Under the pieces are notes generated by a model. The model made no database searches, was not told the DNA's origin, and was given only the letters and a program-made list of their open reading frames with translations. A program made the position numbers and the translations under genes. This document shows positions 40,541-56,329 of a DNA stretch of 64,000 nt, piece by piece. Position 1 is the stretch's first letter. Every line of letters begins with the position of its first letter. This stretch comes from Lentilactobacillus otakiensis DSM 19908 = JCM 15040 (GTDB lineage Bacteria; Bacillota; Bacilli; Lactobacillales; Lactobacillaceae), in NCBI RefSeq assembly GCF_001434145.1, contig NZ_AZED01000003.1, forward strand, positions 124,001 through 188,000. Reading direction: 5' to 3'.

Positions 40541-42115
40541 TTATTTTTTCCAGACGGCGATGGAATCATAATCTTCACCAGTTAATTCTTTAGTAACAGA
40601 TTTTACTTTATTTGAAGCCTCGGACATTTTTCCACCGGCCTTCAAACGAGATACTTCATTGTTGATGAGATCCAGTTTGGGCTTATCAGCTTTAAATGAA
40701 AGACCATTATACAAGGCAACCAGGAAGAAGAAACCAACCCCGACACTGATGAGCAGCGTAAGTGTGAGTTGCACAGTTGCTGATTGATTGACGGCACCGG
40801 TTGTACTGCTCTTAAATCCTGATAATTGAAGAACACCTTCGCCAAGAATGTTGGTAATTACGAACCCACCTTGCTCGAATAATCCTGCAAGTGATGAGAA
40901 AGTTCCAGCGCGATTTTGACCGGTCAACAAAGTGTCCAATACTGGAAGCGATGGGAAGACCGTTCCAGGGATAAAGCCATACAGCTGTCCTCCGAAGATT
41001 GAGAACATCTGAACGATTAATAACCACATTACAAGATGATCCGGCTTAATGAATCCGAGCAGACCAAAGCCAATACATGAGATAAGGGCCATTCCGTAAG
41101 CAATTCCGTACATATATCTTGGTGCATATTTGTTAATCACATATCCGGCAACGATCATGACAAATATTCCGATAAATGTGCTTAGGGATGATAAGTATGC
41201 TGTAACTGAGGCATTTAACCCGAGCACATTCACAATGAAGTAGGTTAGAATTAATCCGTTCAGATTACCTGCCATTTGGTCGGCACCATCGATAAACAGA
41301 TGTTTTCTGAAACTTTTAATTTTGAAGATTGAAAGGTAATCACGAGCTGTTTCTTTAAATCGAATCCAGCGGGTAGCGGAAATGTTTTCGCCTTGCTTAT
41401 GTTCGGCTTCCATGAGAGCTGCTTCATTTTTAGTCACGAAATGTTCCCAGGTTGTGTAATAAGTAATCAGCGCGAAGACAATTCCAACGGCAGAAAGCCC
41501 AATTTGCAGATACAAGTAAATCTTAGGGTCGTTTTTTGGCCAATTGTTCAAGACTTGGGCAACCACGAAAGCAGCAATTGTGTTTAACAATGCCCCGACA
41601 ACGGCACGAACTGTGCCCATGATGGTTCTGACTTTGAAGGAATCAGTCATTTCGGCTGGCAATGTTGTCCAAGGTAAATGGATAGTGTTGAAGAATGCCA
41701 ACAGAACTGAGTAAGTAATAAAATAATACCAGAAATTCAGCCCGGTAATCGGGATTAAGGTTGCATAGACTAAGAATGGAATTGTCATCAAGATGAAGAA
41801 ATGTCGTCTACCATATTTCCGACCAAATTTGAATTTGTAAAGTGAGTCTGAGAAATGCCCAATCCAGAGCGCAACACCAGATGCCAATACTCGGCCAAAA
41901 ATGAGCATGAATGCTACCTGGAGTGGGTTTAAACCACAGAAGTAGGTGTAAAAATATGAGATATAGTTATAACAGATTAAACCAACAGCTGACCCAATAA
42001 ATCCATACATTCCAAATCCAGTGGACCGGAGGATGCCAATTTTTCCACGAGGGGTATATATTTTTTTGTGCGCATACTCGTTCCAACCATCATGTTCTTC
42101 ATTTGTTTTTTGCAT
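40541..42115 (-). CDS. GPH-family glycoside permease (module 1)
   Basis: A 524-residue, 12-helix permease of the glycoside-pentoside-hexuronide:cation symporter family. The helix 1 to 2 segment GFGMYGFIGSAVGLICYNYI, the loop LWIGHFSDSLYKFKFGRKYG and PWTTLPAEMTD fit the family. There is no C-terminal IIA-like domain, only a hydrophilic tail of about 50 residues (RLKAGGKMSEASNKV). ATG 42115 follows a GGAAGTG ribosome site. It lies downstream of the 823-residue protein gene with a 59-base gap and a cre-like site, so they form one module for uptake and breakdown of the same glycoside. Confidence 0.88.
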   Translation of the reverse strand: MQKTNEEHDGWNEYAHKKIYTPRGKIGILRSTGFGMYGFIGSAVGLICYNYISYFYTYFCGLNPLQVAFMLIFGRVLASGVALWIGHFSDSLYKFKFGRKYGRRHFFILMTIPFLVYATLIPITGLNFWYYFITYSVLLAFFNTIHLPWTTLPAEMTDSFKVRTIMGTVRAVVGALLNTIAAFVVAQVLNNWPKNDPKIYLYLQIGLSAVGIVFALITYYTTWEHFVTKNEAALMEAEHKQGENISATRWIRFKETARDYLSIFKIKSFRKHLFIDGADQMAGNLNGLILTYFIVNVLGLNASVTAYLSSLSTFIGIFVMIVAGYVINKYAPRYMYGIAYGMALISCIGFGLLGFIKPDHLVMWLLIVQMFSIFGGQLYGFIPGTVFPSLPVLDTLLTGQNRAGTFSSLAGLFEQGGFVITNILGEGVLQLSGFKSSTTGAVNQSATVQLTLTLLISVGVGFFFLVALYNGLSFKADKPKLDLINNEVSRLKAGGKMSEASNKVKSVTKELTGEDYDSIAVWKK

Positions 42116-42174: not shown

Positions 42175-44646
42175 TTAACTTCTAATTTTGAATGTCACTA
42201 CAGATGTTTTTGGATCAAGCGTATATGCACCACGAACAATTTTTGAGTTGGTGTCGGGAATTAGGTTGTCCGATACTCGAATTCGAATTGTTTCTGGTGT
42301 TACTGAGAAGGTTCCAAAGTGAATTTCGATTTCATTGAGATCTGCATTAAAGTCTGCTGATGCAATTTGTGCTACTTCGGAATTAATTTCAAAGTCTGTT
42401 TCGTTGGTGTGAATGAACAGACGATGTTTAAATGCGTCAGTTGGTTGAAGTCGTAGAAATTCGTTATGACTTGCAAGCTGGCCACCAAATGAGAGCCATT
42501 CGCCATTAGAATTTTGATAAATGTATTGACCGGCATCATGCGCATATCCATAGAAGGCTTGTCCAAAATCTGAAGTGTAAGGTTCAAATTCCATGAATTC
42601 TGGGTCAGTTAGGAAGGCCATTGAGCCAAAACCTTTCTGGTCAATGGAACTGAGAATACTGGTTGAAGCAGCATAACCAACTTCCAGTTTGAATAGGTCA
42701 CACGAGTCGTGGTATTTATAGTTATCGAGGATTGGAATTGCGTTCAGACTTGAACCATAATGTCCGAATTCTCGGGTAATCTTTTCACGTTTGCCATAGA
42801 CGAAAGAATCGAAGTATCTTCTTGAATCACCGTTGTATCCCCAATGAGGGATGAGTGGCGTATATGCAAGAATGGCATTGACGGTTTTGTTTGCCTTGTT
42901 TTGGTCATTGAAGTAGTTACACCAGGTGTACACTTCTTCTTGACCGGTTGAATCCCAAGGCATTTCACTGCCATATGGATATTGTAATTTTGCCCAAGTT
43001 TCGTAACGGTACTTCATATAACTTTCAAATTTATTCACTTCTTCTGTCCAATTTTCGTTTTGAAGGTCTTCTAGAATAGATTTATGAACACTTCCAACCA
43101 TTAACCCGTATTGTTCCAGCTCGAGAAATGCGTCTTTACCACAGAATTTATGCATTGCCATAACTGTGCGGTAAGCTTGGTTTAAGTACCATTTCCAGGT
43201 ATGATTGGTTACCAGACCATCAAAGTTTCGAGCGAGTCGATACATTGCCCAGTAAATGGCAGCTTGATGGGGGTAATTATATGCTCGCCAAGTTTCTTCA
43301 GAACGAGATTTACTCCAGCTATACATAATATCGTTATTCATGTAATACAGGCTGGCCCTGATGCTGTAATCCTTATTCTGTAAATGTCCCCAGAGAACAT
43401 CATCGATGTACTGCTCGAGCATGTGAACTTGTTTTTCATCCGGCAGATATAAATTCTTGATTGCCATGAGGAGGTTTGGGCCAGCTCCGGCTTCATCTGA
43501 GTCACCAGAAATGTATGAGCGGAATTCATCCAGTACTTGGCGATTAGCTTCATTGTCGTAGGTAACAAAGGAATGTTGACGCCCGTATTTATCTTGTTTA
43601 TCGAGCCATTGATTCTTTTCATGAAAGTCAGCTAGCTGCTTTACCAGATGTTCGGCCGATTCAGTCACGTAATAATTGATTGTTTGTTTGGAATTATCCG
43701 AGTAGACAACCTCAATCCTTGCTTGGCCAAAGTAATGGTGAAGTCTCGTCAGTAGATAGCTATTTTGCTTGCGGCTGTTAGAAATTTTAATTGCATTTTC
43801 TGGATCTGAATAGATTCTAGAAATTGTTTTATCAGTATTAATAGTTAGTTCAGCTTGCTCTTCACCGTGAAGAACATAGCCGGGGAAACTGGAAGCACTT
43901 GGAATTTTATTTTGTGCCAATACTTCTGAGATTTTATCTGGCGTGGTAGTGGCAATAAACTTTAATGCAAAGGTTTTTGAATCTCCAGCTTTGAGGACGA
44001 AAGAACTAGGCGTATTCCATTGGCGTTTACCATTCCAGTTAGTGTCAAAGTAAGCCTTTGAAAATGCTGTCCATTCATAGAAGCCTTCAAAATGAACGTC
44101 CTTTTGGGTCTTATCATCGGATAGTGGCCGATACGCCTCAAATGGCGTATTGCCGGCATTTACGACCAGTAAAGTTGGCTTTTGGCCATTGAGACGGGCA
44201 ACCTGAAGGTAACCGGCATCTTGACCAATATATGGATCAATGAACGAGCTGTTGTTGTGACTTTCATCAAGTGAGTTATTAGTAAATATCTGATTGAAAA
44301 TCATGGCAAAGCCTAAACCGCCGACTTCGATATCCTTGGTACTTGAATTAGTGAGTGTTGCGGAAAATAAAACGTCGTCATCTTGAAGGTCCCATATACG
44401 GTCGACTTTGATCGCTGATGCTGACAGTGTTTGGTCATCCTTGGTATTAAAGAATGACCATTGCTGCTCGTTGGTATTTCTAAATGCCAGTTCGACGTCA
44501 CCCAACTGATAAAAATCAGAACCTGCACGATCAACCTTCACTTTGCTGGTGGCAAAATCGAACAGTTCAGAATTTTCATCCTCTGCTGATAAGCTTTTAA
44601 GCAAAGCGACGTTGGAATTAAGATTTTGGATGTGTAATTTAGTCAT
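42175..44646 (-). CDS. Uncharacterised 823-residue glycosidase-like protein (DUF5695-like)
   Basis: No characterised family could be assigned. Residues 1-330 look like a beta-sandwich (alternating strands, LTNSSTKDIEVGGLGFAMIF, FVLKAGDSKTFALKFIATTT). Residues about 350-720 are helical with aromatic-rich turns of an alpha/alpha toroid (NYPHQAAIYWAMYRLARNFD, YPYGSEMPWDSTGQEEVYTW, FGHYGSSLNAIPILDNY). A final beta domain closes it. This layout is typical of clan GH-like enzymes and of DUF5695 proteins. It has no signal peptide, so the substrate must be imported. The 788-residue protein at 53963 shares the layout. Acidic residues in WDSTGQEE are catalytic candidates (guess). Confidence 0.75.
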   Translation of the reverse strand: MTKLHIQNLNSNVALLKSLSAEDENSELFDFATSKVKVDRAGSDFYQLGDVELAFRNTNEQQWSFFNTKDDQTLSASAIKVDRIWDLQDDDVLFSATLTNSSTKDIEVGGLGFAMIFNQIFTNNSLDESHNNSSFIDPYIGQDAGYLQVARLNGQKPTLLVVNAGNTPFEAYRPLSDDKTQKDVHFEGFYEWTAFSKAYFDTNWNGKRQWNTPSSFVLKAGDSKTFALKFIATTTPDKISEVLAQNKIPSASSFPGYVLHGEEQAELTINTDKTISRIYSDPENAIKISNSRKQNSYLLTRLHHYFGQARIEVVYSDNSKQTINYYVTESAEHLVKQLADFHEKNQWLDKQDKYGRQHSFVTYDNEANRQVLDEFRSYISGDSDEAGAGPNLLMAIKNLYLPDEKQVHMLEQYIDDVLWGHLQNKDYSIRASLYYMNNDIMYSWSKSRSEETWRAYNYPHQAAIYWAMYRLARNFDGLVTNHTWKWYLNQAYRTVMAMHKFCGKDAFLELEQYGLMVGSVHKSILEDLQNENWTEEVNKFESYMKYRYETWAKLQYPYGSEMPWDSTGQEEVYTWCNYFNDQNKANKTVNAILAYTPLIPHWGYNGDSRRYFDSFVYGKREKITREFGHYGSSLNAIPILDNYKYHDSCDLFKLEVGYAASTSILSSIDQKGFGSMAFLTDPEFMEFEPYTSDFGQAFYGYAHDAGQYIYQNSNGEWLSFGGQLASHNEFLRLQPTDAFKHRLFIHTNETDFEINSEVAQIASADFNADLNEIEIHFGTFSVTPETIRIRVSDNLIPDTNSKIVRGAYTLDPKTSVVTFKIRS

Positions 44647-44715
44647 ATTAATCTTCCTTACGAGTTTATTTTCCCAGGAATTTATTCAAAAGAATTGTGC
44701 TCGTCAACACAATCT

Positions 44716-44755
44716 TGTAAGCTATATCTTACAGACTAAATTGTAAGCGCTTAGT
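44716..44755. promoter_or_regulatory. Dyad TGTAAG-N6-CTTACA plus cre-like site
   Basis: TGTAAG (44716-44721) and CTTACA (44728-44733) form a dyad. TGTAAGCGCTTAGT (44742-44755) matches the cre consensus at 12 of 14 positions. Both lie in the divergent promoter of the 823-residue protein and an AraC regulator. Confidence 0.5.
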
Positions 44756-44844
44756 TAATTCGCAAAAACTCACATTTTCATATAAAAAGTATCTTTTTTC
44801 ACTTTTTAAATCATCCTGACTCATTTAAAAGAAGGTAATACTGT

Positions 44845-45768
44845 ATGAAACTTGGTTATTTTGATTTAGGGAAACCTTTGAAACTAGTGGAGTGTGGTCA
44901 TTTCATTGCCGAAGAAAGTTGGACGCACACGGCCTCTACTCGAAAGTCTGATACAGAAATCATGATTGGGCTGACGGGTAGTGTGCCACTGTTTATTGGC
45001 AGTGAAAAGTTTAATTTAACACCGGGGAACGTTCTAGTTAATTTCCCTGGAGAAACAATTACAGGTGCCAATCCAGCACAGATTCCTTCTGAATTTATAT
45101 GGATCCATATCATAAATCGTGCACCGCTTGAGGTCATGAATGAACTAAACAGGGATATTGACCTCAAAGAAACTGCTATTTTGCCGAGATGTTTCAGGAT
45201 GGCTGAACCCACTCGTACCTTGGTTCTGGCAATCCAGTTATTAGATATTGCACATCACCAAGGCCACATCTCATCCGCAGATTATGCCGTAACATTGCTG
45301 CTCACTGAACTTTCAAATGATTACATTAATCAACTTTCATCAAGTGACAATGATGAAAGCAAAGTTACGCAAATAAAAGAGTGGGTTAGGCTGAACATTA
45401 ACAAGGAATTGACGGTGCATGATATTGCTGAACATTTTGAAATCAATCAGAATTATTTGGCGGTCATGTTTAAGAATATTACTGGATCTACGGTGAAAGA
45501 ATATTTGAACAGTCTAAAAATTGATCAAGCAAAATATTTATTGTTAACCACCAATGATTCGGTCCAAGAAATTTCCGAGAAAAGTTATTTTAATGATTAT
45601 AAGTATTTCTTTCGAATATTTAAGAAGAATACCAATCTCACCCCTGCTAAATATCGGAACACATTTACCCGAACTTTCTTGAATAGTCCAGCAATTGACC
45701 CAGGGTACGATATTGGGAAGATCGTTGCGGTTCTCGAAAAAGGGATTGATGAGAAAGAACTATTTTAA
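44845..45768 (+). CDS. AraC-family regulator (module 1)
   Basis: A 307-residue regulator with an N-terminal cupin ligand domain (residues 1-150) and a C-terminal double helix-turn-helix (residues about 178-275: ELTVHDIAEHFEINQNYLAV, then SVQEISEKSYFNDYKYFFRI and NLTPAKYRN). It is divergent from the 823-residue protein gene across about 200 bases holding a dyad and a cre-like site, so it most likely controls module 1 (glycosidase-like protein plus GPH permease). The start ATG 44845 has GAAGG upstream. The inducer is probably the imported sugar. A terminator follows at 45805. Confidence 0.88.
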   Translation: MKLGYFDLGKPLKLVECGHFIAEESWTHTASTRKSDTEIMIGLTGSVPLFIGSEKFNLTPGNVLVNFPGETITGANPAQIPSEFIWIHIINRAPLEVMNELNRDIDLKETAILPRCFRMAEPTRTLVLAIQLLDIAHHQGHISSADYAVTLLLTELSNDYINQLSSSDNDESKVTQIKEWVRLNINKELTVHDIAEHFEINQNYLAVMFKNITGSTVKEYLNSLKIDQAKYLLLTTNDSVQEISEKSYFNDYKYFFRIFKKNTNLTPAKYRNTFTRTFLNSPAIDPGYDIGKIVAVLEKGIDEKELF

Positions 45769-45804
45769 ATTTTCAAGGATTGAGATAGTTTGTTGTAAAA
45801 AGAT

Positions 45805-45844
45805 AAGGCACTGTTTCCAAATTAATGAAAACAATGCCTTTTTT
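45805..45844. terminator. Terminator after AraC gene
   Basis: AAGGCACTGTTT...AAACAATGCCTT hairpin followed by TTTT. A second AraC gene converges on it from the right about 100 bases later. Confidence 0.78.
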
Positions 45845-45941
45845 GCATATTTTTTATTGGGATGAAATAAAAAGAAGTCCGCGAGTGAGGTGTTTAACAG
45901 GTTGATTCAGAAATCTTCAGTTGAATATAAAAGTCGAACCA

Positions 45942-46898
45942 TCATGAATCTTGTGGTGCCTCTCCAAAATCAGGCACATCCTTCAAATGTTTAGTGATCT
46001 CTTCTGGAATCGGTAATGTTGGACTAATTACTTGGTTATTGTGATAAATCTCATCGAACTGTGCCCGATATTCACTAGGGGTCATTCCAGTCATCTGCTT
46101 GAATTGTCTCATGAATAGCTTTTCACCATCGAAATAAGCATTGGCTGAGATTTCCTTTATTGATAGGTTGGTTTTGACTAACAATGCTTGAGCTGTATGG
46201 AGTTTCAGCTGGAGAACATATTGCTTTGGTGGAATGCCCACGACTTTTTTGAAAAGCCGAGAAAGATATTGAGGATTTAATTGCATGACGTCGGCCATGT
46301 CTTGGACAGTTGGTGACTTGTAAAGATTGGTTCGAATCCATTCCTTTAATCGATTAATCCGCTCACTATCTCTGGTCTTGAAATCAAGTTGATTTAAAGT
46401 TAATTTACTGATATTGATGATGATCATCGTCATGAAATAGTTAGCCATTTTTCGATCATAGGCATTTTCTGAATTGGTGTTAAGCAACTGATGAATCAAA
46501 ATTGTTAAAAAGTCCAGATCCGGCAATTTAAATTGCTGGGGGATCAGAATATGTTTTGGACTTACGTCCTTATCAGATAGTGTCAGGGAACCGGTACTCT
46601 CAAATAATTGGGTATTGCTTGGCAGAATAAAATGCAGCCAATAGAACTCAACATTTCCAGGAGACGGCTTGGTGCCACGCATCAGAGTATAGGGGGGAAC
46701 CAACAAAAGATCATTTGGTTTCAAAGTGTAGTCTTGCTCTGCCACTTTCAAATGAAGCTCTCCTTTTGTACAAATGATGAGTTCGAAATCACCATGATGA
46801 TATCTTGGATTATGTCGCCAGCCTTCATGCGCTGTAAAAATCCCACCAACCATAAATGTCACCACATCGTCAATACTAAAACTATAATAATTCGTCAT
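45942..46898 (-). CDS. AraC-family regulator (module 2)
   Basis: A 318-residue AraC protein: cupin half with HGDFELIICTKGELHL (residues about 35-50) and a C-terminal DNA-binding half (SPTVQDMADVMQLNPQYLSR; NLSIKEISANAYFDGEKLF; MTPSEYRAQ). The start ATG 46898 follows AAAGGTGG; an in-frame extension to 46952 has no ribosome site. It is divergent from the MFS permease and GH127 genes, and the space between contains a cre-like site and a 16-bp perfect palindrome, so it likely activates that operon. Confidence 0.88.
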   Translation of the reverse strand: MTNYYSFSIDDVVTFMVGGIFTAHEGWRHNPRYHHGDFELIICTKGELHLKVAEQDYTLKPNDLLLVPPYTLMRGTKPSPGNVEFYWLHFILPSNTQLFESTGSLTLSDKDVSPKHILIPQQFKLPDLDFLTILIHQLLNTNSENAYDRKMANYFMTMIIINISKLTLNQLDFKTRDSERINRLKEWIRTNLYKSPTVQDMADVMQLNPQYLSRLFKKVVGIPPKQYVLQLKLHTAQALLVKTNLSIKEISANAYFDGEKLFMRQFKQMTGMTPSEYRAQFDEIYHNNQVISPTLPIPEEITKHLKDVPDFGEAPQDS

Positions 46899-46981
46899 TT
46901 TGTCCACCTTTTTCGTAATAAAAACGTGAAATGTCATAAAAGTATACCACAATTAGTATTTTAGCAGTTTTTTTCAATTTG

Positions 46982-47020
46982 TGAAAGCGTCATCATAAGG
47001 AATGTAGAAAACGTTTTCTA
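46982..47020 (+). promoter_or_regulatory. cre-like site and 16-bp palindrome before MFS/GH127 operon
   Basis: TGAAAGCGTCATCA (46982-46995) matches the cre consensus at 13 of 14 positions. TAGAAAACGTTTTCTA (47005-47020) is a perfect palindrome with the CG centre of cre or LacI-type sites. They lie 30-68 bases before the start codon, so binding would block transcription or early elongation. Confidence 0.6.
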
Positions 47021-47049
47021 ACTTTATATAAAATTTGTAGGTGGAAAAG

Positions 47050-48390
47050 ATGTTAAAAAAACATTTTAGATTCTTTGATTCATTCGGAACACAAGGATCA
47101 ACTGCAACCGCTGATCCCGATACAATTTCTCCAGAAACCGGGAAGCCATGGCCAAAGTCATATGTTTGGCGCTTCCTGATTGCGTTTGTTATTTATGGTA
47201 TTTTGAACAACGCGGCCTTCACTTTAAACGGGGCTGTACTGTTACCTCAACATATTAAAGATGTTGGAATTGTCAATCCAACAGCAGCATACGGTATTAT
47301 TACATCAGTTACGTCTTTGGTATCATTGTTCGTTGGTTACATTTGGGGTACACTTTCTGACAAAACTCGATCAAGATTTGGTAAACGGACACCATGGATC
47401 TTCGTTGGTTCCTTCGTTGCCGGAATTGGTTTGTATTCATTAGGAATTTTCGAATCAACTACCAGTTTGACTTTGGCTTACATCTTTAACACATTAGGTC
47501 AAAACGCTATTCAAACTCCTATGTATGCCTTCCTTGCCGATCGTGCACCTAAGAACGTTCGTGGTACATTATCAGCAGGTTTCGGTGCAACATCTATTGG
47601 TGCCCCAGTTGGTCAGTTCATTAGTTCATACTTCTTGGGTCAATCATTCCAGAACACTGGTTTCATCGTTGGTGGTGTTTTGATTGCCCTTTCAGGTTTA
47701 ATTGTTCTGTTGATTACTCCAAGAGAAAAATCATCAAAAGACGCAGTTATTCCAAAGGAAGAATCAGTATTAGGTGTCTTTGCTACATTGCTACCACCTA
47801 AGATGCACGGTGCCCATGATTTTTACAAGGCTTGTGCCGGCCGATTCTTAGTTATGACTAGTTACACTATGATCTTCCAATACTTGCTTTATATTCTTGA
47901 AAACCATATTGGATTATCAGTATTGGCTGCTGCTCGTGCCATGAACAAGTTGTCAATCTTTACTTTAGTTGTTTCATTGCTTGGACTTGCATTCTCAGGT
48001 CCTATCTCAGACCGTTTGAAAGCACGTAAGATTCCTGTTGCTTTTGGTGGTATGTTCATGATCCTTGGTACTATTAGTTTACTGTTGTTCAAGTCAGTTA
48101 ACGGTGTTATCGGATACGTTGTTTTAGCTGGACTTGGTTATGGTATTTACCTGGCTGTTGATATGGCTTTGAACATCGATGTTATCCCTGACGAAGCTAA
48201 GGATAACAAGACAACTGGTAAGTATGTTGGATTTGGTAATTTGACCAACACTGCTGGTCAAATGATCGCACCGGCTGCTACCTCAATGATTGTTACTGCA
48301 ACTGGAAGCTATGGATTAGTATTCTGGGGATCAATCATTACAACCCTTGTTGGTACAGCATTTATTCTCTGGATCAAGCACGTTAAGTAA
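47050..48390 (+). CDS. MFS oligosaccharide permease (module 2)
   Basis: A 446-residue, 12-helix permease of the GPH/SLC45-like branch. The loop YIWGTLSDKTRSRFGKRTPW after helix 2 and FLADRAPKNVRGTLSAGFGA in the middle are typical. Codon choice is biased to GGT, GTT and CCA, as in highly expressed genes. The start ATG 47050 has AGGTGG five bases before it; GTG 47041 is in frame but would place the ribosome site inside. The GH127 gene follows after 14 bases, so the permease most likely imports beta-L-arabinofuranosyl oligosaccharides or glycosides (inference). Confidence 0.88.
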   Translation: MLKKHFRFFDSFGTQGSTATADPDTISPETGKPWPKSYVWRFLIAFVIYGILNNAAFTLNGAVLLPQHIKDVGIVNPTAAYGIITSVTSLVSLFVGYIWGTLSDKTRSRFGKRTPWIFVGSFVAGIGLYSLGIFESTTSLTLAYIFNTLGQNAIQTPMYAFLADRAPKNVRGTLSAGFGATSIGAPVGQFISSYFLGQSFQNTGFIVGGVLIALSGLIVLLITPREKSSKDAVIPKEESVLGVFATLLPPKMHGAHDFYKACAGRFLVMTSYTMIFQYLLYILENHIGLSVLAAARAMNKLSIFTLVVSLLGLAFSGPISDRLKARKIPVAFGGMFMILGTISLLLFKSVNGVIGYVVLAGLGYGIYLAVDMALNIDVIPDEAKDNKTTGKYVGFGNLTNTAGQMIAPAATSMIVTATGSYGLVFWGSIITTLVGTAFILWIKHVK

Positions 48391-48404
48391 AGGAGTTTTT
48401 ACTC

Positions 48405-50372
48405 ATGGAAACAAAACAAAGTACTCAAATTAATAAGCTTAAAATTACATCACCATTTTGGAAGCGGTACCGTAAATTAATGGCTGATGACTCAATCCCA
48501 TTCCAATGGGACATGATTAACGACAACAACGATGTTGAAGTTGAAAATGACCCGTTTGCTGCCGGTGGAGCTGCCGATAAAAGTCACGCAATTGCCAATT
48601 TGAAGATTGCTGCTGGCCGAATCAAAGGCGACTTCTTTGGAATGGACTTCCAAGATACCGATGTTTATAAATGGTTGGAAAGTGCTGCGTATGTTTTAAA
48701 CTATGCACCAAGCGACAAGCTTCGAAAAGAAGCAGATTCTGTTGTTGATTTGATTGCTGATGCGCAAGAAGATGATGGTTATCTTTCAACGATGTTCCAA
48801 ATTGAGATGCCTGAACGTAAATTTAAGCGTCTTCAACAATCACACGAACTATATTCAATGGGTCATTACATTGAAGCAGGAGTTGCCTATTACACTATTA
48901 CTGGTAATCAAAAAGCTTTAAACATTGCCAAGAAGATGGCCGATTGTATCGACAGCCATTTTGGAACTGGTGAAGGTAAGATTCTTGGAATTCCAGGACA
49001 TCCTGAAATTGAAAATGCATTGTCTCGTTTATACGAAGCAACTCATGAACAGAAGTACCTTGATTTAGCTAAGTACTTCATTACCCAACGTGGTAAGGAT
49101 CCAGAGTTCTTTAACAAGCAAAATAAAGCAGACGGAGCTGACCGTAACTTCTTCCCTGGTCTTGATACCATCGGAAACGCTTACTACTTCGCTGACAAGC
49201 CTGTAACTGAGCAAACTGAACCTCATGGACATGCTGTTCGAGTATTATACTTCTGCACTGGCTTGGCTCATGTTGCTCGATTAACTCATGATAAAGACTT
49301 AATGGATTCTGCTAACCGTCTTTGGAAAGACATCGTTAAGAAGCAAATGTATGTAACTGGTAATGTTGGTCAAACAACGACTGGTGAAGCATTTACTTAC
49401 GACTATGATTTGCCTAATGATACCGATTACGGTGAGACTTGTGCTTCAGTTGCAATGGTCTTCTTCGCCAAGCAAATGATGGCAACTCGTATGAGCGGCC
49501 AATACGGTGATATCATCGAAAAGGAATTATTCAATGGTGCATTGAGTGGTATCGCTTTGGATGGTAAGCATTACTTCTACGTTAACCCGTTGGAAGCAGA
49601 TCCTAAAGCCAGCCACGGTAACCCAGGTAAGAATCATATCAATACCCGTCGTTCATCATGGTTTGCATGTGCCTGCTGCCCATCAAACATCACCCGTTTA
49701 CTTGCCTCAATCGACAAGTACATCTACGAGGTTAATGATGACGTTATCTTGTCACATCAATTTATCGCAAACGATACCACCTTTAAGAATGGTGTCGAAG
49801 TTAACCAGGAAAGCAACTTCCCATGGAGTGGTGATGTTAAATACACCATTACTAACCAAAATAAAGAAGAATTCACATTTGGCATCCGAATTCCAAGCTG
49901 GAGTCGTAACAAGTATGATGTCAAGGTCAACGGTTCATCAGTTGATCCTGAATTAAAAGATGGCATCATTTACATCCCAGTTTCAGATTCTGAAGTCACA
50001 ATTACCTTAAGCCTTGATATGGACACTAAGTTGGTTCGTACCAACACCAAGGTAAAAGATGATATGAACAAAGTTGCCATTCAACGCGGCCCAGTTGTTT
50101 ACTGTGCAGAAGAAGCTGACAACAAAGCACCTCTTTGGGACTATCGTTTGGATGACAAACCACGTCTGACTTACAAGTACGAAAAATCATTATTGGATGG
50201 CGTTGGTGTCATCGAAACTTCAGATGCCAAGATGGCACAAGAAGACGGTGACGAGCTCTATTACACCGACGACATTTCATGGAAGCCAGCAAAGATGACC
50301 TTCATTCCTTACTATGCTTGGGCTAACCGTTCTGAAGGCCAAATGCGTGTATGGCAGGATATTAATCGTTAA
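48405..50372 (+). CDS. GH127 beta-L-arabinofuranosidase
   Basis: Removes terminal beta-L-arabinofuranose, for example from the short arabinans on hydroxyproline-rich plant glycoproteins. The 655-residue enzyme has an N-terminal alpha/alpha barrel and C-terminal beta-sandwiches. The zinc-cysteine active site of HypBA1 is intact: Glu344 and Cys346 in YGETCAS, Cys424 and Cys425 in ACACCPSN. In that enzyme class a cysteine acts as nucleophile. There is no signal peptide, so hydrolysis is intracellular. ATG 48405 follows AAAGGAG; the permease ends 14 bases upstream. A shared terminator follows. Confidence 0.93.
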   Translation: METKQSTQINKLKITSPFWKRYRKLMADDSIPFQWDMINDNNDVEVENDPFAAGGAADKSHAIANLKIAAGRIKGDFFGMDFQDTDVYKWLESAAYVLNYAPSDKLRKEADSVVDLIADAQEDDGYLSTMFQIEMPERKFKRLQQSHELYSMGHYIEAGVAYYTITGNQKALNIAKKMADCIDSHFGTGEGKILGIPGHPEIENALSRLYEATHEQKYLDLAKYFITQRGKDPEFFNKQNKADGADRNFFPGLDTIGNAYYFADKPVTEQTEPHGHAVRVLYFCTGLAHVARLTHDKDLMDSANRLWKDIVKKQMYVTGNVGQTTTGEAFTYDYDLPNDTDYGETCASVAMVFFAKQMMATRMSGQYGDIIEKELFNGALSGIALDGKHYFYVNPLEADPKASHGNPGKNHINTRRSSWFACACCPSNITRLLASIDKYIYEVNDDVILSHQFIANDTTFKNGVEVNQESNFPWSGDVKYTITNQNKEEFTFGIRIPSWSRNKYDVKVNGSSVDPELKDGIIYIPVSDSEVTITLSLDMDTKLVRTNTKVKDDMNKVAIQRGPVVYCAEEADNKAPLWDYRLDDKPRLTYKYEKSLLDGVGVIETSDAKMAQEDGDELYYTDDISWKPAKMTFIPYYAWANRSEGQMRVWQDINR

Positions 50373-50426
50373 TAACAGGTTTCTGACACCGATCATATTC
50401 GATTAATTTCAGTTCAACTCATAAAA

Positions 50427-50479
50427 ATAAAGTCTCTTCCTGTAAGCTAACCCCATTGCTTATAGGAAGAGACTTTATT
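50427..50479. terminator. Bidirectional terminator
   Basis: AATAAAGTCTCTTCCT pairs with AGGAAGAGACTTTATT between the GH127 gene and the convergent AraC gene. Confidence 0.9.
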
Positions 50480-50480
50480 A

Positions 50481-51416
50481 TTACATAAATTGATTACCAG
50501 AGCCGTCATCCGGCATGTTTGGTTTCAGACTAATATATTTCTTACGATATTCGGATGGTGACATTCCATAGCCCTTCTTAAAAGCCATGGAGAAGTAATA
50601 AACATTTTGATAACCCACTTTAGTGGCGATCGTACTGATCTGATCAGAGGTTAACAATAAATACTTGGTGGCTTCCTCTAATCGATACTTTGTCAGTAAA
50701 TTGTTTGGTGTGATTCCGAAAGTTTTCTTCATATATAGAGAAACGGAATTGGGATGGATATGGAATTCCTTGCCAAGCTGTTCGTAAGTAATTTTTTCAT
50801 CGAAATGATCTTCGATATATCGCTGAATTTTATTGGCGACCATTACCATTGGGGACTCCTGCGGCGTTTGGACTTGAACCTGCTGCAGGAGATCAAGAAA
50901 TAGCTGTTGCGCTTTCCAGAATTCGATGGAGTTTTGAGTTGTATCTGAGTGATTCTCACTTGATTTTCGGCTATTCGCAAAAATTTTCTTCATCATGGAG
51001 ATAATCGTTTTTTCGTTTGGAATTGCTTGCTGTTTTCGCAAGAAAAGGGTAATTGTCGAAGTGTAGTAATGGATTGCCGGAACAGGGATCACGGGTCGCA
51101 CCTGTTTAGGTTCTTGCGCTTGGATGTAATTACCGGTGGTTGTGAAGTGGATCCAGTAATATTCTGTTGTTTCATCCATTGGTTTCCAAGAATAATGATG
51201 ATGCTGAGGTTGTAGTATGAACATTTCTCCAGCACTCACAGTGTATTTTGTGTCGTCTTCAGCAATATATAATTTTCCACGTTGTAGAAACATCATAACG
51301 AAGAATTGAAAATTCTTACGATTAGGATGTCGCTCGCCTGGTCGAAAAACTACATGACCACTCTGAATATACATTGGCGTTGGCAGACAGGAAATGGATA
51401 AATACTCCTTGACCAT
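50481..51416 (-). CDS. AraC-family regulator (module 3)
   Basis: A 311-residue AraC protein with cupin domain (residues 1-130, FVMMFLQRGKLYIAEDD and FILQPQHHHYSW) and C-terminal DNA-binding half (ITYEQLGKEFHIHPNSVSLY, then QISTIATKVGYQNVYYFSMA and MSPSEYRKK). ATG 51416 follows TGGAGGTTTAATC. Divergent from the GH146/DUF5695-like/GPH genes across 336 bases that contain AAGTCAAA direct repeats (near 51497 and 51515) and a cre-like site. It is the probable activator of that operon. Confidence 0.88.
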   Translation of the reverse strand: MVKEYLSISCLPTPMYIQSGHVVFRPGERHPNRKNFQFFVMMFLQRGKLYIAEDDTKYTVSAGEMFILQPQHHHYSWKPMDETTEYYWIHFTTTGNYIQAQEPKQVRPVIPVPAIHYYTSTITLFLRKQQAIPNEKTIISMMKKIFANSRKSSENHSDTTQNSIEFWKAQQLFLDLLQQVQVQTPQESPMVMVANKIQRYIEDHFDEKITYEQLGKEFHIHPNSVSLYMKKTFGITPNNLLTKYRLEEATKYLLLTSDQISTIATKVGYQNVYYFSMAFKKGYGMSPSEYRKKYISLKPNMPDDGSGNQFM

Positions 51417-51690
51417 GATTAAACCTCCAATTTGAAACCGTGACATTATAGAAATAATATTAGATTTTATAAACTGATTAGCTGATATTATAAAAATAAG
51501 TCAAAAACCATAAAAAGTCAAATTTCACATTTCTCAATGAAATTAATTGAGTTTCATTTATCGCTGATATATTGGGGATCACTGCATGTTCAACTATTAA
51601 CTAAAGCGCTTTTATTTTTTTGTATTATTTTATAAACATTCAATAGAATAATAGATGTTAATTACCTCTTTTCGAATGTATTCTATTAAT

Positions 51691-51704
51691 CGTAAGCGGT
51701 TACA
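51691..51704 (+). promoter_or_regulatory. cre-like site before GH146 operon
   Basis: CGTAAGCGGTTACA matches the CcpA consensus at 13 of 14 positions, 49 bases before the start codon. The rest of the 336-base divergent gap is AT-rich with AAGTCAAA repeats. Confidence 0.6.
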
Positions 51705-51752
51705 GAATTATGCATTTCAAAATTCACTTTTGATTAGAAAGGACAATTTAAA

Positions 51753-53933
51753 ATGAAACCGGTATCATACTACGACATTAAATATTTGCCAAATTCGACT
51801 TTGAAAGAAAAGTTTGAACGTAACATCAACTGGATGCTCTCGTTGACTCCAGATCAGTTACTTTACAACTACCGCAAAAACGCGGGCATGGACACTAAGG
51901 GGGCTACCCCATTAACTATCTGGGAATCACCTGATTGGTTCTTCAGAGGTCACTTCACTGGTCATTATCTTTCAGGCGCTTCACGAAGCTTTGTGGAACT
52001 TAACAACATGGAAGACACTGATGAAGCAAATCAATTGAAGCAACGCATTGATAAAATTGTTGAAGGCTTAAAAGAAGTTCAAGAAAAGTTCGATACATTT
52101 GAAGAATTCCCTGGATATTTATGTGCTGAACCTTCAAAGCGTTTCGATGACGTTGAGAAGCTCAGATTCAACGGTAACCATTATGTACCATATTATGCTG
52201 TTCAGAAGTTAATGGATGGTTTGATGGACGCCTACGAATTCACTGGTAACAAGACCGCGATGGAATTGACTGAGAACATGACTCATTACTTCGAGAAGCG
52301 GATGGCACGTCTAACCCAAGACCAAATCGATGCAATGATCGATACTCGCTGGTACCAAGGTAAAGGCCACTATGTATACCATCAAGAATTTGGTGCAATG
52401 CACAGAACCTTACTCCGACTTTACGAATTAAACGGTAAGAAAGAACAAGATGTGTTAGACCTAGCCGAAAAATTTGATCGTAAATGGTTCCGCGACATGC
52501 TCATTAAAGATGACGATGAATTAGGATACTACTCATGTCACTCAAACACTGAGTTAGTTTGTGCCGAAGGAATGCTTGAATATTATCACGTAACTGGTGA
52601 TGAAAAGTACAAGCAAGGTGTTGTGAACTTCATGAACTGGATGCATAACGGTCACGAATTACCAACTAAAGGTATTTCCGGACGTTCAGCATATCCAGCA
52701 CCTGCTGATTATGGTTCAGAACTTTACGATTACCCAGAAATGTTCTTCAAGCACTTATCCAAGTTAAACGGTGAAAGCTGTTGTTCACATGATTTGAACT
52801 TCTTGAGTTCAGAATTGTTCGCTGACACTAAGGATGCTACTTTGATGGACGACTACGAGATGCGGTTCATTAACGCCATCATGGCTCAGCAAAACAATGA
52901 CAGCGCTATCGCAGAATATCTCTACAACTTGAGTGTTGCACCTAACTCAACTAAAGAGTTTGACCGCGGCGGCTTCTGGTGCTGTGTAGGTAGTGGTACT
53001 GAACGTCACTCAACCTTAGTCGACGGAATCTACTATGAAGATGGCAACGACGTCTATGTTGCACAATACTTCGATTCAATTCTGAACCTTAAGGACAAGG
53101 GCTTAACCATTACCCAGGATTCACATTATCCAGATCAACATTTTGCTCACGTTACCGTTGAATCTGATAAAGACCAAGAATTCACTGTTTACGTTCGAGT
53201 TCCTAAGTGGAGCGCAGAAACAACCATTACTGTTGACGGCAAAGAAATCAATGCAGAACCAAAGAATGGTTTCGTTGCAATTACCCGGACTTGGGGCAAG
53301 AAATCAGAAATTAGAGTTAACCTTGATTTCCAACTTCGTTACCAAACCCTTGCCGACCGTTTCAACCGTGTGGCAATCTACTACGGCCCAATCTTATTAG
53401 CTGCTCAAACTAAAGATTTGCCTGCATCAACTAAGCCTGCTGCTGAATACCTTGAAGACCTTGTCAAAGTTGAAGGTAAGAATAACTTCCGTCTTGCCGG
53501 AACAGACATCATCTTTAAAACATTGCCAGAAATCCCAGCCGACACACCTTACAACGTTTATGTAAAAGTTCCGGATGAAGATGTTGCGACAACTATTGAT
53601 ACTCAAAATGATAGCGACAAGCCTGCAAATGAACAACATTCATGGACATTGGCAGTTGATCCAGACAAGAAGAACTACTTGAAGATTACCTATGATTATC
53701 TTGATGGTGATATTTACAGTTTCCAAATTCAAGATGATAACAAAGTTCTCTTCACTCAAACAATGAAGAATGATGAGTGGCCAGAAGATTCTTACTACAT
53801 TTACCCATTACCAATTGATGCAACTAAAGGTAAGAACAAGATCAACATTAAGATTACGCCACTTGATTACGAGAGCCTGAACTTCGATATTGCTAACATC
53901 AACAAGATCGAAACCATGGTTTCAAACAAGTAA
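51753..53933 (+). CDS. GH146-type beta-L-arabinofuranosidase (DUF1680 superfamily)
   Basis: A 726-residue member of the GH127/GH146 superfamily. The helical barrel (residues about 20-430) contains FRGHFTGHYLSGASRSF and the metal/cysteine site: Glu341 and Cys343 in GESCCSHD, Cys410 and Cys411 in FWCCVGSG. Two beta domains follow. Assignment to GH146 rather than GH127 rests on the RGHFTGHYLS start, the WCCxGSG form and the length. It is cytosolic (no signal peptide). ATG 51753 follows AAAGGACAATTTAA. Its closest partners are the next genes: a DUF5695-like protein after 29 bases and a GPH permease. Confidence 0.88.
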   Translation: MKPVSYYDIKYLPNSTLKEKFERNINWMLSLTPDQLLYNYRKNAGMDTKGATPLTIWESPDWFFRGHFTGHYLSGASRSFVELNNMEDTDEANQLKQRIDKIVEGLKEVQEKFDTFEEFPGYLCAEPSKRFDDVEKLRFNGNHYVPYYAVQKLMDGLMDAYEFTGNKTAMELTENMTHYFEKRMARLTQDQIDAMIDTRWYQGKGHYVYHQEFGAMHRTLLRLYELNGKKEQDVLDLAEKFDRKWFRDMLIKDDDELGYYSCHSNTELVCAEGMLEYYHVTGDEKYKQGVVNFMNWMHNGHELPTKGISGRSAYPAPADYGSELYDYPEMFFKHLSKLNGESCCSHDLNFLSSELFADTKDATLMDDYEMRFINAIMAQQNNDSAIAEYLYNLSVAPNSTKEFDRGGFWCCVGSGTERHSTLVDGIYYEDGNDVYVAQYFDSILNLKDKGLTITQDSHYPDQHFAHVTVESDKDQEFTVYVRVPKWSAETTITVDGKEINAEPKNGFVAITRTWGKKSEIRVNLDFQLRYQTLADRFNRVAIYYGPILLAAQTKDLPASTKPAAEYLEDLVKVEGKNNFRLAGTDIIFKTLPEIPADTPYNVYVKVPDEDVATTIDTQNDSDKPANEQHSWTLAVDPDKKNYLKITYDYLDGDIYSFQIQDDNKVLFTQTMKNDEWPEDSYYIYPLPIDATKGKNKINIKITPLDYESLNFDIANINKIETMVSNK

Positions 53934-53962
53934 CAATTATTAACGCCAGGAGGGTTTTACAC

Positions 53963-56329
53963 ATGAAGTCAGAGTTTCTGACAGTTACACAAAATAAACG
54001 AGGTGCAATTACCAAACTCCAGTTAAATTCGGACAAATCCAATATGAACTGGGTGATTGATCCGGAATATCTCGAGTCACTTGGATACGATGATTTGGAT
54101 AAACTCTTTGGTGAATTCAATATTACTGTTAACGGCCAAAAACACCGCAGTATTGATCAAATCCCCCGAGTGAGTGGAGACGATACTCATAGCACGATTG
54201 AATTTAAAGTGGGAGACCTTTCACTGGTTCAAGAATTTAAGTTGATTGGTAATTCATTTAAATGGGACTTCACCGTTAAGAATAACGGCCAAGAAGATGT
54301 GACAGTTAATAATCTTGGCGTGTGGGTCAGCTTGGCATATGTCATGTTTAGAGACAAGAACGTTAAGCGGAACGCCAACCAATCCGTTGCGGTCTTCCCA
54401 CAGATTTCAAAGAATTATACCAAACTTGCTGCAGTTCGGCGGGATAATACCAGTCCCAACATGGGATTGTATCAAACAAAGGGTGAAGTTCTTTCGGTAG
54501 GGACTTTCAATGACTACACCAACCGATTCTTTGAGAATGTTTCACCATCATTGGATGGGATGCTTTTCCACGAGATTGTGTTGGCAGGCGGCTACGACGA
54601 TGATCGCAGACCACATAATGATTGGATTTACCCTCAAAACTCACTGGTGATCAAACCAGGTGAGAGTCGAGACTGGGAATTCTATTTGAAGCCATATACG
54701 ACTCAAAAGGATTTTTACGATATTGCAACCAACTATTACAATCATCCGCGATTTGCTTTTGAACCGATGATTTCTCAAGGAGCCTATCAAGTCTTCAACA
54801 TTAAGCTTGCGAAGGGTCAAAATTTAAAACGAATCTCAGTTCGTCATAAGTCTGGGACCCACATTATTGATCAGGATATGACCGACCAGCTTGAAAATGG
54901 CCGTTTAGTATATGAGCCTCAAGGCCTGGGTGAACATCAAGTGGTCTTAGAATTTGATGACGGTACCGTTGATATGGGCGTGTTCAATGTTATGAACTCG
55001 ATCAACGAACTGCTTCAAAATCGCGCTGATTATGTTTCTGAACATTCGTATGCCGGTGCTGATGGTAAGGTGCCATACAGCTTCGGGCCCGTTTCAAATC
55101 AAGGTGAGTCTATCGGCAAGATGACCTTCATCCTTCAAGAGTGTTTGCTGGACGATAAGGTTGAGAATGCTGACAAGCAAATTGCCCAGGTTGAAGAAAG
55201 TGCCGTGAAGTACGTTCGACCAAAGTGGTTTGAAAATGGTGATTTCAAGAAACCGGCGAAGTTATACGGTGACTTCTATCGTTTAATGGATCTCGAATAC
55301 ATCGCCCATATGTTCTACTTGTTATCAAAATGTCCGGCATCCGCGTTGAAATTGAACCAGCCAAATGACTATCTTTCCTGGGCTGCACAAGTCTTTGACG
55401 TTCGGGTGAACCCGGATTTGAATGATAACGAGCGTGGTAAGACAGAGGCGCAGATGTTAGGAACATACGGCCTGTACATTGAAGACTTGCTGGCAGACTT
55501 GAAGAAGAGTGGTCTGGACAAAGAATATTCCGAAATCTCCAAGTCATGGAAAAATGTGACTGATCGACTGGCTGCCAATAGTGATTCACTGGAAGCAGCG
55601 ATGACTGAACATTTCTTTGACAATGCAGGATTTGGTCCAGCAGCCGGAGCGTTGGCACTGACTGGCAATACCCATGCGGCGATGACGTATGGTGAGCTCT
55701 TAAAAGCCAATATCGGCTTCAGTAACGATTTCAGGTCTCAAAGCCCTGATCGTTGGTGGGAAGCTCTCTCGTACATGATTCATGCCTTGTGGGGTGGCTT
55801 AACTGCCGCATCTGCTCAAATTGCCGGTGAGAAGCTTCAAGATCCTGAATTAGTTGAAGCAGCTTATCGTGCTACCGGGGCAGTTCTGTATATGTACGAT
55901 TCAAATGCCACCGCAACTGATCGGATGCTCGAACCGGGTGACGCTGCATCAACCTACAGTATCGCCGGGCCTAATTTGAACCGTCCCGACTTATCTCGGA
56001 ACCGGTTTGGCCAATCGATTTTTGCTTCCGATGGCGGAATTTTTGCCCGCCTGTTCCCTGATGGATATACGGGTGAGGATGACTGGGATATGGGCGAAGA
56101 ACTCGTAGCTTTCCTGAATGGTTTTGGTCAAAAGACCTATATCTATAAGGATCCGGACAAGGGACTCACAGCGGTTAATGGACGGGTAAAGAAACTTGTT
56201 GATAATCATTACGAGATTCAGAGTTTCGCGCCATATATCAGTGAGTACATTTATTTAGATGACAATCAAGTTTTTGAAAGTCATAAAGATAAAGCATTGT
56301 TCAATCTTGCAACCAGGAAGTTTGAATAA
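53963..56329 (+). CDS. Uncharacterised 788-residue glycosidase-like protein (DUF5695-like)
   Basis: A second protein of the same layout as the one at 42175. Residues 1-270 form an N-terminal beta-sandwich (FTVKNNGQEDVTVNNLGVWV, NSLVIKPGESRDWEFYLKPY). Residues about 350-700 are a helical toroid with SYAGADGKVPYSFGP, AGFGPAAGALALTGNTHAAM and PDRWWEALSYMIHALWGG. A short beta tail ends it. Cytosolic, with no signal peptide. AGGAGGG precedes ATG 53963, and the gene follows GH146 by 29 bases. It probably removes the sugar next to the arabinose in the same glycan, but no activity can be assigned from sequence. Similarity to the 823-residue protein is of layout; direct identity is low by eye. Confidence 0.78.
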   Translation: MKSEFLTVTQNKRGAITKLQLNSDKSNMNWVIDPEYLESLGYDDLDKLFGEFNITVNGQKHRSIDQIPRVSGDDTHSTIEFKVGDLSLVQEFKLIGNSFKWDFTVKNNGQEDVTVNNLGVWVSLAYVMFRDKNVKRNANQSVAVFPQISKNYTKLAAVRRDNTSPNMGLYQTKGEVLSVGTFNDYTNRFFENVSPSLDGMLFHEIVLAGGYDDDRRPHNDWIYPQNSLVIKPGESRDWEFYLKPYTTQKDFYDIATNYYNHPRFAFEPMISQGAYQVFNIKLAKGQNLKRISVRHKSGTHIIDQDMTDQLENGRLVYEPQGLGEHQVVLEFDDGTVDMGVFNVMNSINELLQNRADYVSEHSYAGADGKVPYSFGPVSNQGESIGKMTFILQECLLDDKVENADKQIAQVEESAVKYVRPKWFENGDFKKPAKLYGDFYRLMDLEYIAHMFYLLSKCPASALKLNQPNDYLSWAAQVFDVRVNPDLNDNERGKTEAQMLGTYGLYIEDLLADLKKSGLDKEYSEISKSWKNVTDRLAANSDSLEAAMTEHFFDNAGFGPAAGALALTGNTHAAMTYGELLKANIGFSNDFRSQSPDRWWEALSYMIHALWGGLTAASAQIAGEKLQDPELVEAAYRATGAVLYMYDSNATATDRMLEPGDAASTYSIAGPNLNRPDLSRNRFGQSIFASDGGIFARLFPDGYTGEDDWDMGEELVAFLNGFGQKTYIYKDPDKGLTAVNGRVKKLVDNHYEIQSFAPYISEYIYLDDNQVFESHKDKALFNLATRKFE

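What the first reader, a model, noticed from the sequence alone, without database searches (positions are those of the whole stretch)
42175..56329. Two large uncharacterised glycosidase-like proteins inside an arabinoglycan island
The 823-residue (42175-44646) and 788-residue (53963-56329) proteins share a beta-sandwich plus helical-toroid layout and sit in operons with GPH permeases and, in one case, GH146. Neither shows motifs of a known glycosidase family by eye. Each appears to belong to a different module, so they may be new enzyme families acting on plant glycans.
Basis: partly seen in the sequence, partly recalled or inferred. Interest (0 to 1): 0.85.

Follow-up and report, generated by a model that had tools for sequence, protein, structure and literature searches.

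The report
Arabinose-island cousins of a rhamnose lyase
Two large, untested plant-sugar enzymes in a lactic acid bacterium turn out to be distant relatives of each other and of a known rhamnose-removing lyase, and the genes around one of them suggest it frees arabinose inside the cell.

Summary
The two ORFs are real at the stated coordinates, in a Lentilactobacillus arabinoglycan island. P1 (42175-44646, minus) is a full-length DUF5695/PF18951 protein. P2 (53963-56329, plus) has no Pfam hit of its own but is a remote sister of DUF5695: profile-profile E 8e-16 against 0.05-0.3 in controls, and 12 of 59 family members hit PF18951. For both, the closest solved structure is the PL27 L-rhamnose-alpha-1,4-D-glucuronate lyase BACCELL_00875 (Foldseek E 2e-25 and 2e-28). 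P2's neighbourhood is about L-arabinose: araB/araD/araA, GH51, GH43, GH127, GH146 and, in one Paenibacillus clade, GH121 beta-L-arabinobiosidase with its ABC importer, where P2 stands in for the intracellular beta-L-arabinofuranosidase HypBA1 of Bifidobacterium longum. The host has no RhaA or GH88/GH105 match, though some P2 carriers do. Best reading: P2 is an intracellular arabinosidase, likely for beta-L-arabino-oligosaccharides, built on a PL27 scaffold; P1 does a related job for its own permease. Activity is inferred, not shown. New variant of a known kind.

The parts
42175..44646 (-). P1: 823-aa intracellular-type DUF5695 (PF18951) protein, PL27-like fold
   Evidence: Pfam 807.5 bits over profile 4-823 of 857; AF2 pLDDT 77.2; Foldseek top 5NO8 PL27 E 2.2e-25, TM 0.60/0.73
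40541..42115 (-). GPH/MFS_2 permease downstream of P1, 59 bp gap, same strand
   Evidence: PF13347; gap; relatives also beside DUF5695 in L024, L027, L030
44845..45768 (+). AraC-family regulator divergent from P1
   Evidence: clusters with a representative that has HTH_18/HTH_AraC
45942..46952 (-). AraC-like regulator
   Evidence: ORF sequence, by eye only
47041..48390 (+). MFS permease of the GH127 module
   Evidence: PF07690, PF13347
48405..50372 (+). GH127 beta-L-arabinofuranosidase-like enzyme
   Evidence: PF07944 348.7 bits plus GH127 M and C domains
50481..51446 (-). AraC-family regulator divergent from the GH146-P2-GPH operon
   Evidence: clusters with a representative that has HTH_18/HTH_AraC
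51753..53933 (+). GH146-type beta-L-arabinofuranosidase-like enzyme, first gene of the P2 operon
   Evidence: PF07944 185.9 bits plus GH127M; conserved Glu and Cys
53963..56329 (+). P2: 788-aa member of an unnamed family, sister of DUF5695, PL27-like fold
   Evidence: hhalign to DUF5695 E 8.4e-16; AF2 pLDDT 93.3; Foldseek 5NOK E 1.7e-28, TM 0.68/0.80
56412..57812 (+). GPH:cation symporter, last gene of the P2 operon
   Evidence: TIGR00792 367 bits over cut-off 231
57966..58002 (+). terminator-like hairpin (16 pairs, T-rich tail) after the P2 operon
   Evidence: consensus scan only; 9 such sites found in the stretch against a mean of 6.0 in shuffles
58388..59551 (+). GH27-type (Melibiase_2) enzyme of the next module
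   Evidence: PF16499 83.6 bits; N-terminus continues upstream of the listed start
59579..60967 (+). second TIGR00792-type GPH symporter of the island
   Evidence: TIGR00792 326 bits
61451..62452 (-). AraC-family regulator
   Evidence: clusters with a representative that has HTH_18/HTH_AraC

Best explanation
P1 and P2 are two diverged branches of one enzyme superfamily that also holds PL27 (shown by sequence profiles and predicted fold). P2 works in the cytoplasm: the GPH permease (in many Paenibacillus an ABC importer) brings in a small arabinose-containing oligosaccharide, GH146 or GH127, where present, removes one kind of beta-L-Araf, and P2 cleaves another L-arabinosyl bond, most likely a beta-L-arabinofuranosidic one as in beta-Ara2, feeding AraA-AraB-AraD (inferred from gene neighbourhoods). 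Cleavage is more likely hydrolytic than eliminative, in the (alpha/alpha) barrel, with arginine R440 and invariant carboxylates (E549, D553 and, among those special to P2, D443, D589, D596 or E600) as candidate residues (inferred from conservation alone). P1 serves its own GPH permease in the same way on a related oligosaccharide; its chemistry is open, since it keeps nine tyrosines that DUF5695 shares with PL27.
For: Superfamily: hhalign of the two families prob 98.6, E 8.4e-16 over 706 columns against prob 0.2-1.1 in three GH127/GH146 controls; PF18951 hits at E up to 0.01 in 12 of 59 P2-family members; PDB profile hits to 5NO8, E 4.8e-10 for P2 and 1e-17 for DUF5695; Foldseek top hit PL27 for both. 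Arabinose: of 80 named loci, AraA in 15, FGGY kinase (taken as AraB) in 17, AraD-type in 16, GH51 in 18, GH43 in 10, GH127 in 14, GH146 in 13, GH121 in 6; at least one of these in 51 of 80. Seven Levilactobacillus loci (L044, L047-L052) have GPH-AraC-P2-araB-araD-araA in a row. AraA in 31 of 32 P2 genomes against 47 of 198 sampled Lactobacillales, four of the 47 being known P2 carriers. A strong GH121 match in 7 of 32 P2 genomes, each time one and in the P2 operon, in the order LacI-P2-SBP-ABC-ABC-GH121; in B. longum the same set has HypBA1 instead. No GH127/146-type match in 5 of 32 P2 genomes, so P2 does not need those partners. Host: no RhaA, no GH88/105.
Against: No activity data exist. 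The GH121 association is one clade of Paenibacillus, that is one evolutionary event, and all 7 of those genomes also have GH127-type genes elsewhere. 29 of 80 loci show none of the arabinose genes looked for, many of them Paenibacillus LacI-SBP-ABC-ABC-P2 operons and Weissella. Other P2 carriers do have GH88/105-type genes (12 matches in G316, 9 in G513, 5 in G272, 1 in G165) and 14 of 32 have RhaA, so lyase chemistry is not excluded there. P2 keeps a tyrosine at some other PL27 tyrosine positions (Y576 in all, Y505 in 90%). The best solved relatives of the GH121-operon SBP are of UspC type, and third an arabino-oligosaccharide binder at E 1.8e-12; no beta-Ara2 binder was listed. GH127 sits in the same stretch as P2 in 14 of 80 loci, so the two are not simple substitutes everywhere. 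No coordinates were available, so the pocket was not inspected; residue assignments rest on a low-identity alignment.
Confidence: 0.47

Rival explanations
1. P1 and P2 are true lyases like PL27: they cleave a sugar (rhamnose or arabinose) linked to C4 of glucuronic acid in arabinogalactan-protein side chains by beta-elimination, leaving an unsaturated uronide.
For: Same fold as PL27; a BACCELL_00875 fragment scores 36.4 bits on PF18951 against cut-off 25.2; R-x-Y-N-Y and nine tyrosine columns are shared by PL27 and DUF5695, and P2 keeps other PL27 tyrosines (Y576, mostly Y505). PL27 substrate is gum arabic/AGP (PMC8377490, passages). Several P2 carriers have GH88/105-type genes (5 of 12 genomes over the cut-off; one of these five, G692, only by 28.0 bits inside a 733-aa ORF).
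Against: Own genome has no match for GH88/GH105 or RhaA. The window P2 has no tyrosine at the nine columns where PL27 and DUF5695 share one, and PL27's proposed base is a tyrosine (recalled from the abstract of the 2017 J Biol Chem PL27 paper, not held here; which tyrosine I do not know). The released sugar suggested by the neighbourhood is arabinose. For P1 the objections are weaker.
Confidence: 0.23
2. P2 is an arabinosidase but of another linkage: beta-L-arabinopyranosidase, alpha-L-arabinofuranosidase, or an arabinobiose phosphorylase-like enzyme.
For: The neighbourhood tells the released sugar better than the linkage; GH94 phosphorylases are the next structural hits after PL27, though only at TM about 0.28. 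The window also holds a GH27-type enzyme, a family with beta-L-arabinopyranosidases (recalled).
Against: alpha-L-Araf is already covered by GH51 or GH43 in many P2 loci (18 and 10 of 80); the GH121 operon points to beta-Ara2.
Confidence: 0.22
3. One reading: two unrelated new glycosidase families resembling clan GH-L/M/O toroids.
For: Overall layout; GH94 among later Foldseek hits.
Against: Mutual homology and PL27 as the only near-whole-chain match with a high TM-score in the rows shown.
Confidence: 0.03

Closest known systems
PL27 L-rhamnose-alpha-1,4-D-glucuronate lyase BACCELL_00875 (PDB 5NO8, 5NOK)
   Same: Overall fold (TM to target 0.80 for P2, 0.73 for P1), N-terminal beta-sandwich plus (alpha/alpha)6 barrel, shared Arg, Glu and acidic positions
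   Different: About 14% identity; window P2 lacks the nine tyrosines PL27 shares with DUF5695; arabinose rather than rhamnose/uronate gene context; no GH88/105 or RhaA match in the host; P1 and P2 lack a signal peptide by eye
PF18951 / DUF5695
   Same: P1 is a full-length member; P2 is a remote homologue
   Different: P2 itself gave no hit; 12 of 59 members of its family hit at E 0.01 or better. The Pfam family has no stated function
GH127 HypBA1 of B. longum
   Same: P2 occupies its slot beside GH121 and the ABC importer in one Paenibacillus clade
   Different: No similarity to the GH127 relatives tested (hhalign prob 0.3); P2 has no invariant cysteine for a Cys3-Glu zinc site
GH146 beta-L-arabinofuranosidase (Bll3HypBA1)
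   Same: A GH146-type gene is P2's operon partner in Lentilactobacillus; beta-L-Araf theme (PMC10850190, abstract)
   Different: No similarity to the GH146-type relatives tested (prob 0.2)
GH121 beta-L-arabinobiosidase HypBA2 (6M5A)
   Same: Operon partner in 6 of 80 named loci
   Different: Secreted type; not among the 50 Foldseek rows shown for P2

Membership tests
PF18951 (DUF5695), P1 | score above curated cut-off 25.2 bits | tested here: met
   807.5 bits, profile 4-823/857
PF18951 (DUF5695), P2 | score above curated cut-off 25.2 bits | tested here: not met
   window protein: no hit at E up to 1; of 8 close relatives listed in a genome search, 5 score 25.3-29.9 bits and 3 score 23.8-24.6; 12 of 59 family members hit at E up to 0.01
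PL27 | N-terminal beta-sandwich plus (alpha/alpha)6 barrel | tested here: met
   AF2 plus Foldseek; definition from passages of PMC8377490; P1's barrel is modelled with low confidence in places
PL27 | sequence-level family membership in CAZy | not testable with these tools
   no CAZy models; only remote profile hits E 4.8e-10 and 1e-17
PL27 | catalytic tyrosine | tested here: inconclusive
   which tyrosine is not known here; P1 has a tyrosine at all nine columns shared by PL27 and DUF5695, the window P2 at none of them, but P2 keeps tyrosines at other PL27 positions such as Y505 and Y576
PL27 | beta-elimination on Rha-GlcA | not testable with these tools
   needs an assay; no RhaA or GH88/105 match in the host argues against
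GH127/GH146 | sequence homology and Cys3-Glu zinc site | tested here: not met
   hhalign prob 0.3 and 0.2; no invariant Cys in P2
beta-L-arabinofuranosidase (activity) | release of L-Ara from beta-L-Araf substrates | not testable with these tools
   genomic context only

The most novel reading that the evidence does not exclude
P2 founds a new glycoside hydrolase family on a polysaccharide-lyase scaffold: an ancestor shared with PL27 lost the eliminating tyrosine and acquired carboxylates, turning a lyase barrel into an intracellular, non-zinc, non-cysteine beta-L-arabinofuranosidase that replaces HypBA1 beside GH121; secreted DUF5695 proteins beside it would be a parallel extracellular branch.
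Probability: 0.33. Interest if true: 0.75.

Novelty: new variant of a known kind. Interest (0 to 1): 0.55.

Why it matters
It ties a Pfam family of unknown function and an unnamed family (135 stretches found in one species collection) to a characterised lyase fold, and names a concrete substrate class to test. If P2 hydrolyses beta-L-arabinobiose, it adds another, unrelated solution to beta-L-arabinofuranoside breakdown in food- and plant-associated bacteria and a possible case of lyase-to-hydrolase conversion.

Tried and rejected
Clan GH-L/M/O-like toroid as closest relative: rejected, GH94 and the like appear only far below PL27. P2 as a divergent GH127/GH146: rejected. P2 on plasmids: no match. 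DUF5695 in viral contigs: none confirmed. PHROGs: none. Literature, all ten searches: 'DUF5695' is in 1 paper, a table in a study of fungal regulators (passage); 'BACCELL_00875' in 1; PL27, GH146/Lactobacillus (41), rhamnose capping (66), HypBA1/GH121 (86), L. brevis arabinose operon (89) and a novel arabinofuranosidase family in Lactobacillus (102, no paper) showed no paper on P2 or on DUF5695 function in the rows listed; one search listed 15 of 62 and 15 of 17. The library lacks most subscription journals, so this is not proof of absence. I first thought the SBP cluster shared by GH121 and DUF5695 operons meant one substrate; at 31-32% identity that is too weak and I dropped it. The unknown 780-aa proteins beside P2 in L071, L075 and L077 were tested through the L071 copy only, which gave weak GH76 similarity.
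Full report
Observation. Both ORFs are present at the stated coordinates. They lie in an island of four permease-plus-enzyme modules with AraC-type regulators: GPH plus P1, MFS plus GH127, GH146 plus P2 plus GPH, and GH27 plus GPH. P2 is 29 bp behind GH146 and 82 bp before its GPH permease, and a terminator-like hairpin follows at 57966-58002 (consensus scan only). The host is a Lentilactobacillus close to L. sunkii and L. kefiri (P2 92% and 90% identical in the best segment; tree).

What the proteins are. P1 matches PF18951 (DUF5695) along its length at 807.5 bits. P2 matches nothing in Pfam, NCBIfam or PHROGs and, as a single sequence, nothing convincing in the PDB (one row, E 0.28; P1 none). 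P2 relatives were found in 6 of 295 sampled genomes of its order and 3 of 398 of its phylum, the own genome counted in each. A pattern scan of the GTDB species collection gave 135 stretches that encode a relative, of which the best 80 were fetched: Lactobacillaceae including Weissella, Sporolactobacillus, Enterococcus, Bacillaceae, Paenibacillaceae, Alicyclobacillus, Lachnospiraceae and other Clostridia-type records, and single Kineococcus and Coriobacteriia records.

P1 and P2 are related. A PF18951 search of 24 Lentilactobacillus genomes found matches in 11; eight of the listed matches, 23.8 to 29.9 bits, five over the 25.2 cut-off, are P2-family proteins with 66-92% identity to P2. When 59 family members were scanned one by one, 12 hit PF18951 at E 0.01 or better, best 4.9e-8; 47 did not, the window P2 among them. 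Profile-profile comparison of 59 P2-family rows with 9 DUF5695 rows gave probability 98.6, E 8.4e-16, 706 aligned columns; the same test gave 0.3 and 0.2 for P2 against GH127 and GH146 and 1.1 for DUF5695 against GH127. Plain BLAST of P1 against P2 shows nothing significant (E about 0.2).

Both belong with PL27. The profile of each family finds one solved protein, BACCELL_00875 (5NO8/5NOK), at E 4.8e-10 and 1e-17 (DUF5695 gave two chance-level rows besides). Of two BACCELL_00875 fragments, the one from about residue 220 to 566 scores 36.4 bits on PF18951 and the N-terminal one nothing. hhalign of P2 against the longer fragment gave probability 75.7, E 2.4e-5; the GH127 control 5.6, E 0.007. 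AF2 models (P2 pLDDT 93.3; P1 77.2 with seven stretches under 50) have the same PDB protein as top Foldseek hit: E 1.7e-28, TM 0.68/0.80 for P2 and E 2.2e-25, TM 0.60/0.73 for P1. The next P2 hits, GH94 phosphorylases, have TM about 0.28. PL27 enzymes release rhamnose from gum arabic by beta-elimination and have a beta-sandwich plus (alpha/alpha)6 barrel (passages of PMC8377490).

What P2 acts on. In the stretches of up to about 22 kb held for the 80 named loci, neighbours include AraA 15, FGGY kinase taken as AraB 17, AraD-type aldolase 16, GH51 18, GH43 10, GH127 14, GH146 13, GH121 6, DUF5695 9 (L045 added by hand after its Pfam hit), GPH 49, AraC 52, LacI 44; 51 of 80 hold at least one gene of the first eight kinds and 29 hold none. 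Names rest on one Pfam- or PDB-checked representative per cluster. For a single-copy gene, 22 kb of a 2-8 Mb genome would be hit by chance in about 1% of loci or less (arithmetic). The most telling arrangement is GPH-AraC-P2-araB-araD-araA in seven Levilactobacillus loci (L044, L047-L052). AraA occurs in 31 of 32 P2 genomes, including all 20 Lactobacillales among them (one of these, G709, taken as a P2 carrier because its DUF5695 protein equals that of L030), against 47 of 198 sampled Lactobacillales, four of the 47 being known P2 carriers. Related species count many times in these numbers. RhaA occurs in 14 of 32 and not in the own genome. GH88/105 (PF07470) was sought in 12 genomes: none in the own genome, matches at E 0.001 or better in 7, over the cut-off in 5, with 12, 9 and 5 matches in G316, G513 and G272.

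The beta-arabinoside link. In one Paenibacillus clade the operon reads LacI-P2-SBP-ABC-ABC-GH121. The last gene, tested in L089, matches HypBA2 6M5A at E 1.9e-111 and the NCBIfam HypBA2 model at 648 bits, below its equivalog cut-off of 3200. Of 32 P2 genomes, 7 have a strong GH121 match (E 1e-170 or better), one each, in the P2 operon; ten others have only weak matches (best 1.3e-14) and 15 none. The own genome has none. In B. longum the GH121, the ABC importer and the intracellular GH127 HypBA1, which splits beta-Ara2, form one cluster (PMC7263609, passages). P2 thus stands in HypBA1's place. This is one clade (support 100 in a quick tree of 79 rows; L064 and L078 were left out as broken up), and those genomes keep GH127-type genes elsewhere, so it is suggestive, not proof. 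In 5 of 32 P2 genomes no GH127/GH146-type match was found at all, so P2 can serve without them.

Mechanism. Aligned with PL27 and DUF5695, P2 keeps an arginine (R440; R454 in P1) and two acidic positions (E549, D553; E561, D565 in P1) common to all three, and has invariant or nearly invariant D443, H449, H550, D589, D596, E600, H607 and others of its own. There are nine columns where PL27 and at least 80% of the ten DUF5695 rows share a tyrosine; the window P2 has a tyrosine at none, though 61% and 22% of its relatives have one at two of them. Against this, P2 keeps tyrosines at other PL27 positions (Y576 in all, Y505 in 90%, Y522 in 71%, Y502 in 61%). PL27's proposed base is a tyrosine (recalled; which one I do not know), so this test is inconclusive. 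P2 has no invariant cysteine. Together with the arabinose context and the lack of a GH88/105 match in the own genome this leans to a hydrolase for P2; for P1 lyase and hydrolase both remain open. Intracellular location is read by eye from the absence of a signal-like N-terminus, in contrast with the DUF5695 proteins of L025, L026, L028 and L099.

Verdict. Superfamily placement is well supported. Arabinose release by P2 is likely, beta-linkage and hydrolysis are reasoned guesses, P1's reaction is open. I file P1 as a DUF5695 member, P2 as a new sister family in a PL27/DUF5695 superfamily, and neither as PL27.

Noticed in passing
window 58240-58400: The GH27-type gene's conserved N-terminus (GWNSWDGYG...) lies in frame upstream of its first ATG; the nearest upstream ATG is in another frame. 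Alternative start, sequencing error or damaged start, not decided.
   Followed up: partly
G000:C4:305702-308044 (L021 7613-10141): A second DUF5695 paralogue in the same genome (54% identical to P1) with no arabinose gene seen among the ORFs listed beside it.
   Followed up: partly
L028 (Sporolactobacillus shoreicorticis): Carries AraC-GH146-P2-GPH-DUF5695; its P2 falls in a clade with ten GH146-linked rows, the other nine named ones all Lentilactobacillus, which suggests transfer of the operon.
   Followed up: partly
L071 7544-9904, L075 7586-9925, L077 7285-9642: Unknown 780-aa proteins directly upstream of P2 in three Paenibacillus; the L071 copy has only weak GH76/GH88 similarity, and P2 is followed there by a DUF4432 protein.
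   Followed up: partly
L025 14524-18315, L026 2175-6011, L099 2787-8411, L020 1-5685: Large multidomain DUF5695 proteins near P2 (L025, L026 and L099 with a signal-like N-terminus by eye); in L020 one takes the place that GH121 has in related operons.
   Followed up: partly
window 48405-50372: The GH127 enzyme hits the NCBIfam aceric acid hydrolase model at 382 bits, well below its cut-off of 950.
   Followed up: no
L109: A DUF5695 gene interrupted by one internal TAA in an unnamed Lentilactobacillus relative.
   Followed up: no
window 62727-64000: GH36-type (Melibiase) gene running off the window end, so the sugar island continues.
   Followed up: no
L058, L059, L066, L095 (Weissella): P2-AraC-GPH unit with none of the arabinose genes looked for in the stretch held; AraA is present in the three of these genomes that were searched.
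   Followed up: partly
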